Made by a program: the position numbers and the translations under genes. DNA of 64,000 nucleotides. It comes from an uncultured Acetobacteraceae bacterium (GTDB lineage Bacteria; Pseudomonadota; Alphaproteobacteria; Acetobacterales; Acetobacteraceae). The stretch spans positions 186,001 to 250,000 of the forward strand of contig CAIVPZ010000041.1 of the NCBI GenBank assembly GCA_903907955.1, given 5' to 3'. Shown in pieces: positions 28,832 through 30,676 of the stretch. Under the pieces are notes generated by a model. That model searched no databases, was not told the DNA's origin, and was given only the letters and a program-made list of their open reading frames with translations. Numbering within the stretch: position 1 is the stretch's first letter; every line of letters starts with the position of its first letter.

Positions 28832-30136
28832 TCACGCGATCCGTGCCAGTGCGTCGGCGACGCTGACTTCGGTGCGTTCTCCGGTGGCGCGGCGTTTGAG
28901 TTCCACTTTCCCGTTGGCGGCGCCGCGCGGCCCGACCACGATATGCCAGGGGTGGCCCATCAGGTCGGCGTCGGCGAATTTCACGCCGGCGCGGTCTTCG
29001 CGGTCGTCGTAGAGCAGGTCGTTGCCGAGGCGGCGGTAGATATCGGTGCAGATCGCGTCGCAGGCGGCGTCGCCTTGCTTGAGGTTCAGCAGCGCGGCTT
29101 TCCAGGGTGCCACGCTGTCCGGCCATTTGATGCCGGCATCGTCGTGCGAGGCTTCGATGATGGCGCCGACGAGACGGGAGACGCCGATGCCGTAGCTGCC
29201 CATGTGCGGCACCAGCGGCTTGCCGTCCGGGCCGGCGATGGCGAGGCCCATCGGCTCGCTGTATTTGGTGCCGAAGTAGAAGATATGGCCGACTTCGATG
29301 CCGCGGCCTTCGCGCCGGTCCGGCACGCCTTCCCAGGCGACGGGGTCGTGCTTCTCGTCGGTGGCGGCGTAGGGGGTGGTCAGGCGTTCGTAGCAGCGGG
29401 CGAGATCGGCATTGGAGTCGAAGGAGAACTCGCCGGAAGCCGGGTCGATCTGTTCGAAGGCGGCGTCGTAATACACTTGGCTCTCGCCGGTGGGGGCGAG
29501 GATGATGAATTCATGGCTGAGGTTGCCGCCGATCGGCCCGGTATCGGCGACCATCGGGATGGCTTTCAGGCCGAGGCGCTGGAAGGTGCGCATATAGGCC
29601 AGCATCATCTTGCGGTAGGAAATGACCGCGCCCTCATAGTCGAGATCGAAGGAATAGGCGTCCTTCATGAGGAACTCACGGCCGCGCATGACGCCGAAGC
29701 GCGGCCGGACCTCGTCGCGGAACTTCCACTGGATGTGATACAGGTTCTGCGGCAGTTCGCGGTACGACTTCACCGACTGGCGGAAGATGTCGGTGATCAT
29801 TTCCTCGTTGGTCGGCCCGTACAGCATCTCGCGGTCGTGGCGGTCGCGGATGCGCAGCATTTCCGGCCCATAGGCGTCATAGCGGCCGCTCTGCCGCCAC
29901 AGATCGGCGGGCTGGATGGTCGGCATCAGCATTTCCTGCGCGCCGGCGGCGTCCTGCTCCTCGCGCACGATGCGGGCGATGTTCTGCAGCACCCGCCAGC
30001 CGGCCGGCAGCCAGGCGTAGATGCCCGCCGAGGTCTGCCGCACCAGGCCGGCGCGCAGCATCAGGCGATGCGAGGCGATCTGTGCCTCGGCCGGGGTTTC
30101 CTTGAGCGTCGGCACGAGACTGCGGGAGAGGCGCAT
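28832..30136 (-). CDS. proS: Proline-tRNA ligase, short form without editing domain
   Basis: 434 aa class II synthetase charging tRNA-Pro. Class II core motifs: [57 protein letters not shown] with MKDAYSF, and [17 protein letters not shown] (motif 3). The roughly 180-residue INS editing domain of the E. coli type is absent; motif 2 and 3 are joined directly, the alphaproteobacterial form. Correction of mischarged Ala-tRNA-Pro would need a free-standing editor elsewhere. Start ATG 30136 has only a weak GGAT upstream. The tRNA-Pro(UGG) at 63.26 kb would be a substrate. Confidence 0.95.
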
Positions 30137-30327
30137 GGGCAGGTATCCGTGTGGGTGATCGGCGGGGCGGACCCTAGCCGGGGATGGGGCATATCGCCAG
30201 ACGGCATTGCGCCGCCGCGCAGGCGCCGGGTGTGCTCATTGCGGGTCTGCACGTATTTTGCGCGCGTCGGTTCGGAACGCTGATGGCATGCCGGGTTGAC
30301 AATTGCAGTCATTGCATAAAGTAACTT

Positions 30328-30374
30328 TTGTGCGCCGCACAAGGAATGGGCGCAATAAATTCGCCTTGTGCGGC
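30328..30374. promoter_or_regulatory. TTGTGCG repeats / 11-bp inverted repeat upstream of proS
   Basis: TTGTGCG-C-CGCACAA at 30328-30342 is a 15-base palindrome with one central base. GCCGCACAAGG (30334-30344) is also exactly complementary to CCTTGTGCGGC (30364-30374) across a 19-base loop. Three half sites of the same heptamer in 47 bases suggest an operator or alternative RNA stems. A TTGACA/TAAAGT pair lies just upstream on the plus strand. Confidence 0.4.
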
Positions 30375-30424
30375 CTCTTGACGAACGAAAAGGCGTGACG
30401 AGCACGGACAGATCGTATAGAACG

Positions 30425-30459
30425 AAAAAAGGCCCGCGTGCCTCAGGGCACCGCGGGCC
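30425..30459 (-). terminator. Intrinsic terminator of the small RNA (and possibly of rnj)
   Basis: Stem GGCCCGCGGTGCC / GGCACGCGGGCC with one bulge, four-base loop, followed on the minus strand by TTTTTT. The strongest intrinsic terminator in the window. It would also stop minus-strand read-through from the nuo-birA-coaX-rnj operon before proS. Confidence 0.75.
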
Positions 30460-30551
30460 AAGTTTAGGGAGGAAACGCCAGTCACACGGCAGGAAGGAGG
30501 ACACTATCCTCTTCCTGTCGTGATGATGGACCACCGCCGAGTGGGGCGTCC
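30425..30551 (-). ncRNA. Probable trans-acting small RNA with anti-Shine-Dalgarno loop
   Basis: Read on the minus strand the region folds into three stems: a 5' hairpin closing GGAC...GTCC (30551-30528), a long stem pairing CAGGAAG with CTTCCTG and flanking CACG with CGTG (about 30523-30485), and a terminator stem (30459-30431) followed by six T. Between stems two and three is a single-stranded GTTTCCTCCCTAAACTT, complementary to ribosome binding sites; TCCTCC also occurs in stem two. This layout is that of alphaproteobacterial sRNAs such as the suhB/MmgR group; membership is inference. The 5' end is estimated from the promoter-like AT-rich stretch upstream. Confidence 0.6.
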
Positions 30552-30676
30552 AACAGTATTTTGTTTATTTTTCGGGGATTCTTGGCGGTTCAAACCGGCT
30601 TTGCTGCCGTTTTGGACTGTCTGCGCTCTTGTTGCGGGCATTTGCCTATAGCGCGGGCAGAAAACCGGCCCGACCA

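What the first reader, a model, noticed from the sequence alone, without database searches (positions are those of the whole stretch)
30425..30593. Candidate anti-Shine-Dalgarno small RNA between rnj and proS
Minus strand: promoter-like hexamers, two stems, an unpaired GTTTCCTCCCTAAACTT, and a GC stem with six T. The exposed CCUCCC and the layout resemble alphaproteobacterial sRNAs of the suhB/MmgR kind that block ribosome binding sites. It is placed in a gap otherwise without genes and lower in GC.
Basis: partly seen in the sequence, partly recalled or inferred. Interest (0 to 1): 0.65.

Follow-up and report, generated by a model that had tools for sequence, protein, structure and literature searches.

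The report
MmgR-type sRNA, family-specific lineage
Between the genes for RNase J and prolyl-tRNA synthetase, this Acetobacteraceae genome encodes a predicted small regulatory RNA of the known MmgR/suhB (alphaR8) family, probably a blocker of ribosome-binding sites; it belongs to a lineage found at the same chromosomal place in about two thirds of its bacterial family and in none of the other alphaproteobacteria sampled.

Summary
Confirmed as an sRNA candidate of a known kind. Rfam RF00519 (suhB/MmgR, alphaR8) matches 30416-30497 on the minus strand at 41.5 bits (cut-off 41). The family's 10-mer UUUCCUCCCU is present and predicted unpaired, between a weak hairpin and a terminator. The genome holds five alphaR8 copies; this is the weakest-scoring. 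It is the local member of a distinct lineage: a 31-nt core (30460-30490) occurs in 186 of 299 Acetobacteraceae genomes (63 of 102 genera) and in none of about 380 other alphaproteobacteria, mostly between rnj and proS. Sibling copies carry PhaR (PHB-regulator) boxes in their promoters; this one does not. AlphaR8 RNAs and PhaR are lost together across the family. Likely mechanism, inferred from Caulobacter SisA: Hfq-assisted pairing of CCUCCC with Shine-Dalgarno regions, repressing translation. Targets and expression are untested. Rfam's cut-off missed 11 of 23 orthologues tested. Ordinary in kind; the lineage and its separate promoter are the modest new points.

The parts
30548..30553 (-). -35-like element TTGGAC
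   Evidence: A TTGAC/TGGAC element at this place is shared by orthologues of many genera; inference from conservation, no start-site data
30523..30528 (-). -10-like element CATCAT (CATNAT in orthologues)
   Evidence: Conserved in the alignment of 74 loci
30424..30516 (-). Predicted sRNA transcript, about 93 nt (5' end estimated, 7 nt after the -10)
   Evidence: RF00519 match 30416-30497, 41.5 bits; promoter conservation; terminator
30491..30516 (-). 5' stem-loop, 8-10 bp in orthologues, with a bulge here
   Evidence: Covariation: 13 cells changed on both sides against 4.8 in shuffles, 0 of 500; 28 distinct arm pairs, 93% paired
30477..30490 (-). Weak hairpin GCC-GUGUGACU-GGC, loop nearly invariant in the lineage
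   Evidence: Predicted fold; invariant pairs, so no covariation test possible
30460..30490 (-). 31-nt conserved core of the lineage, GCCGTGTGACTGGCGTTTCCTCCCTAAACTT
   Evidence: 186 of 299 family genomes, 63 of 102 genera; only the window's own genome among 385 class genomes
30466..30475 (-). 10-mer seed UUUCCUCCCU with anti-Shine-Dalgarno CCUCCC
   Evidence: Exact match to the published alphaR8 10-mer (PMC12559287); one hit in the window, 0.01 expected
30425..30459 (-). Rho-independent terminator: GGCCCGCG hairpin and six T
   Evidence: Predicted fold, aligned as the terminator of RF00519

Best explanation
It is a trans-acting sRNA of the alphaR8 (suhB/MmgR/SisA) family, transcribed from its own promoter downstream of rnj. 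Inferred mechanism: with Hfq, its exposed UUUCCUCCCU pairs with purine-rich Shine-Dalgarno regions of several mRNAs and lowers their translation, as shown for Caulobacter SisA. The genome has five such RNAs with the same seed. Four have a different 5' part and PhaR boxes upstream, so they probably respond to PHB/carbon status; this one, without the box, probably supplies the same seed under a different signal. Shown here: family match, conservation, structure with covariation, synteny, promoter difference. Inferred: transcription, Hfq binding, targets, signal.
For: RF00519 over its cut-off; exact published 10-mer; five copies in the genome; lineage core in 186 of 299 family genomes; synteny with rnj and proS; covarying 5' stem; conserved promoter-like element and sharp conservation peak; hfq and phaR genes present; PhaR boxes in 30 of 37 type-1 copies but not here; alphaR8 and PhaR co-occur, 115 both present, 26 both absent, 9 discordant of 150. 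Mechanism precedent: SisA pairing proved by compensatory mutations (PMC12559287).
Against: No expression data. The Rfam score passes by only half a bit. No target was established: phasin mRNAs show no clear extended pairing and SD-complementary sites are not specific. The -10 element is weak and the scan with the E. coli consensus finds nothing.
Confidence: 0.85

Rival explanations
1. The element is not an independent gene but the 3' end of the rnj mRNA: its terminator plus a stable piece released by processing, acting, if at all, as a 3'UTR-derived sRNA.
For: Same strand as rnj, 187 nt after its stop codon, and no terminator found between rnj and the sRNA; rnj lies just upstream in most loci.
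Against: A promoter-like element is conserved at fixed distance before the 5' stem in many genera, while the stretch between rnj and it is poorly conserved; the siblings elsewhere in the genome are free-standing; MmgR and SisA-D have their own promoters.
Confidence: 0.08
2. A redundant copy without a role of its own, kept or decaying after duplication.
For: Four siblings share the seed; lowest Rfam score of the five; some PhaR-bearing relatives lack the lineage.
Against: The core is nearly invariant over 63 genera at one place in the chromosome, and the stem changes by compensation; decay does not do that. Partial redundancy of function is not excluded.
Confidence: 0.04
3. A short coding sequence: a 157-codon mechanical ORF (30061-30534, minus) covers the core.
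For: The frame is open through the core and tblastn finds matches in orthologues.
Against: Most matches beyond the closest relatives are short and centred on the core; wobble positions in the core are as fixed as the others; stem-loop lengths of 23-26 nt break the frame just upstream.
Confidence: 0.02

Closest known systems
MmgR of Sinorhizobium meliloti (alphaR8; Rfam RF00519 suhB)
   Same: Rfam model match, 10-mer seed, weak hairpin, terminator; siblings in this genome share the PhaR box that represses mmgR
   Different: This copy has a longer covarying 5' stem, sits between rnj and proS and has no PhaR box; MmgR is 77 nt and the sole copy in its genome
SisA-SisD of Caulobacter crescentus (alphaR8 siblings)
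   Same: Several copies with one seed and unrelated promoters in one genome; exact 10-mer
   Different: SisA is linked to the N-formylglutamate amidohydrolase gene; here that linkage belongs to the sibling at L002. No CrfA-like sponge found here
Rhizobial anti-Shine-Dalgarno sRNAs with CCUCCUCCC loops (SmelA075/SmelA099; NfeR1/alphaR14)
   Same: Exposed anti-Shine-Dalgarno sequence
   Different: CCUCCUCCC, in SmelA075/SmelA099 in several hairpin loops (PMC3927594); here one linear motif, and no such Rfam match in the window

Membership tests
alphaR8 / suhB / MmgR (RF00519) | Covariance model score at or over the gathering score (41) | tested here: met
   41.5 bits, full model 1-77; narrow margin, and 11 of 23 orthologues scanned fall below
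alphaR8 / suhB / MmgR (RF00519) | 10-mer UUUCCUCCCU | tested here: met
   Exact at 30466-30475
alphaR8 / suhB / MmgR (RF00519) | 10-mer single-stranded, after a weak hairpin | tested here: met
   Predicted fold of the 74-nt form; in the MFE of the longer form a few weak pairs form around it, absent from the centroid
alphaR8 / suhB / MmgR (RF00519) | Rho-independent terminator | tested here: met
   12-pair hairpin and six T
alphaR8 / suhB / MmgR (RF00519) | Hfq-dependent pairing with mRNA targets | not testable with these tools
   hfq is present in the genome; binding not testable
alphaR8 / suhB / MmgR (RF00519) | Linkage to an N-formylglutamate amidohydrolase gene (common, not obligatory; paralogues lie elsewhere) | tested here: not met
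   Flanks are RNase J and ProS; the FGase-linked copy is L002. Published paralogues SisB-D lack it too, so this does not exclude membership
Betaproteobacteria toxic sRNA (RF02278) | Gathering score 50 | tested here: not met
   22 bits

The most novel reading that the evidence does not exclude
The rnj-proS lineage is a functionally distinct Acetobacteraceae sRNA: freed from PhaR control in most genera, it uses its nearly invariant GUGUGACU loop and covarying 5' stem as a second working part and acts on the siblings' targets under a different signal.
Probability: 0.15. Interest if true: 0.55.

Novelty: new member of a known kind. Interest (0 to 1): 0.33.

Why it matters
My searches of the paper library found no study of alphaR8 RNAs in Acetobacteraceae. 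The lineage offers a natural contrast: siblings with one seed, most under likely PHB (PhaR) control and one not, the latter at a locus conserved over most of a family. It also shows that Rfam's cut-off misses about half of this lineage (11 of 23 orthologues tested), so alphaR8 counts in Acetobacteraceae are probably too low.

Tried and rejected
Coding explanation: rejected. Plasmid spread: no similar plasmid record. Target search by AGGGAGGA...ATG in seven congeners: hits include solute-binding proteins, glycerol and dihydroxyacetone kinases and a gluconolactonase-like protein, but any good Shine-Dalgarno matches, so it is only a lead. Phasin mRNAs as targets: no clear extended pairing. Sponge search: the only two AGGGAGGAAA sites of the genome outside the five sRNA genes lie in or beside open reading frames and look unremarkable. 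The 2016 survey of alphaR8 evolution (Lagares et al., cited in PMC12559287) was not read, and the 2017 MmgR paper is not held, so whether this lineage was already listed could not be checked. One Pfam call failed on wrong coordinates and was repeated with letters.

Full report
OBSERVATION. On the minus strand between 30593 and 30425 most of the described features are present: a 5' stem, a small GCC/GGC hairpin, the linear GTTTCCTCCCTAAACTT (30476-30460), a GC hairpin and six T. The 17-mer occurs once in the window and never in shuffles. The RNA folds better than every one of 200 shuffles. The gap (30137-30676) has GC 0.587 against 0.684 for the window. The flanking genes are RNase J (PF22505, PF07521) and a class II tRNA synthetase with anticodon-binding domain, consistent with ProS, all on the minus strand.

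FAMILY. Rfam 15 gives RF00519 suhB/MmgR at 41.5 bits (cut-off 41), full length, 30416-30497 minus. The genome has five places over the cut-off, at 53.5, 53.3, 52.6, 52.6 and 41.5 bits. In 150 genomes of the family, 123 have a match. The traits stated for alphaR8 (10-mer UUUCCUCCCU, single-stranded, after a weak hairpin and with a terminator; PMC12559287) are met.

A SEPARATE LINEAGE. The window copy differs from its four siblings. The siblings and nearly all of the best-scoring copies of the family read (C)TTCTTGGACG before TTTCCTCCCT ('type 1', my label); the window copy reads GCCGTGTGACTGGCG before it ('type 2'). The 31-nt type-2 core, with up to three mismatches, occurs in 186 of 299 family genomes and 63 of 102 genera, usually once, with no hit for the reversed control; in 385 genomes spread over the class only the window's own matched (five of the 385 belong to the window's family). 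A scan of named genomes returned 80 readable contigs, mostly titled as Acetobacteraceae genera (Roseomonas, Neoroseomonas, Belnapia, Acidiphilium, Acidocella, Elioraea, Asaia and others); some are metagenome bins with vague titles and one is labelled Solirubrobacterales. Synteny: 57 of the 80 have rnj before and proS after the core, 11 more have one gene with the other side beyond the contig data, 11 have only one of the two, one has neither. An alignment of 74 loci shows conservation peaking sharply on the core and falling to little outside the promoter, stem, terminator and one downstream box.

STRUCTURE. All 38 type-2 loci examined have an 8-10 bp stem directly 5' of the core, of varying sequence, a few with a bulge or mismatch. 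In 28 distinct arm pairs 93% of positions pair, with 30 cells changed on both sides; dealing out the 3' arms anew gives 84% and 10. In a gapless set of 15 sequences 13 cells are changed on both sides against 4.8 in shuffles, 0 of 500 reaching it, and sliding the partners destroys the signal. Relatedness of the sequences is not controlled by the shuffles. The small GCC/GGC hairpin never varies in that set, so it is neither supported nor refuted.

PROMOTER. Orthologues share a GTTGAC-like element and CATNAT, in the window TTGGAC 30553-30548 and CATCAT 30528-30523 (spacing 19, long for sigma-70), giving a start near 30516 and an RNA of about 93 nt. This is inference from conservation.

REGULATION. 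Published PhaR consensus sequences are TGCRNYGCASMA (Bradyrhizobium diazoefficiens, PMC6201568) and a palindrome around YGCRNYGCR (S. meliloti, PMC12542648); the mmgR promoter is bound by PhaR in gel shifts, and PhaR is reported to repress mmgR. In the 160 nt upstream of the seed, strict TGCRNYGCA boxes occur in 30 of 37 type-1 copies (1.3% of shuffles) and in 12 of 38 type-2 copies (L047, L054, L055, L057, L059, L065-L071), where all but that of L065 lie just at the -10. The window copy has none. Across 150 family genomes alphaR8 and PhaR are both present in 115, both absent in 26, discordant in 9; descent is not controlled for. Hfq is kept in all 126 high-quality genomes.

MECHANISM. SisA of Caulobacter represses a TonB-receptor mRNA by pairing of this 10-mer with the 5'UTR, shown with compensatory mutations, and is sponged by CrfA. 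By homology the window RNA most likely represses a set of mRNAs in the same way. No target was established here. What separates it from its siblings is its promoter and its 5' half, so a different induction signal is the most likely reason for its upkeep; this is inference.

ANNOTATION GAP. Of 23 type-2 orthologues scanned with Rfam, the window copy included, 12 reach the cut-off and 11 do not; the window copy passes by half a bit.

VERDICT. The finding is a new member of a known kind, with a well supported lineage of its own in Acetobacteraceae.

Noticed in passing
window 30328-30342: TTGTGCGGCGCACAA, a perfect match to the published PhaR box, lies between the sRNA and proS; a box at this distance (about 105-122 nt after the core) recurs in 18 of 38 type-2 loci against 6% of shuffles (relaxed form), also where the next gene is not proS. 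Which promoter it serves is unknown.
   Followed up: partly
window 30394-30399: GTCACG, 54-61 nt after the core, recurs in many type-2 loci of several genera, including some without the PhaR-like box; unexplained.
   Followed up: no
L001-L004 and L015-L046: Type-1 alphaR8 copies of the family carry PhaR boxes upstream, often two, one before the -35 and one at the start site, which suggests PHB control of most alphaR8 RNAs in Acetobacteraceae.
   Followed up: yes
150 family genomes: AlphaR8 RNAs and PhaR are lost together in 26 genomes, 18 genera lacking both; Hfq stays but scores lower in most of these genomes (E about 1e-22 to 1e-27 against about 1e-31).
   Followed up: partly
L020 (G104:C4:165025-165614): Three type-1 alphaR8 copies in tandem within about 600 bases.
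   Followed up: no
L001, L002, L003: Two sibling sRNAs of the window's genome lie beside ROS/MUCR regulator genes (L001, L003) and one beside an N-formylglutamate amidohydrolase gene (L002), the classic alphaR8 neighbour.
   Followed up: partly
L047, L054-L059, L066-L071: In these relatives proS lies about 1.2 kb further on, and an open frame that looks like an acyltransferase (by eye only) starts soon after the sRNA; most of them have the PhaR box in the sRNA promoter instead of downstream.
   Followed up: no
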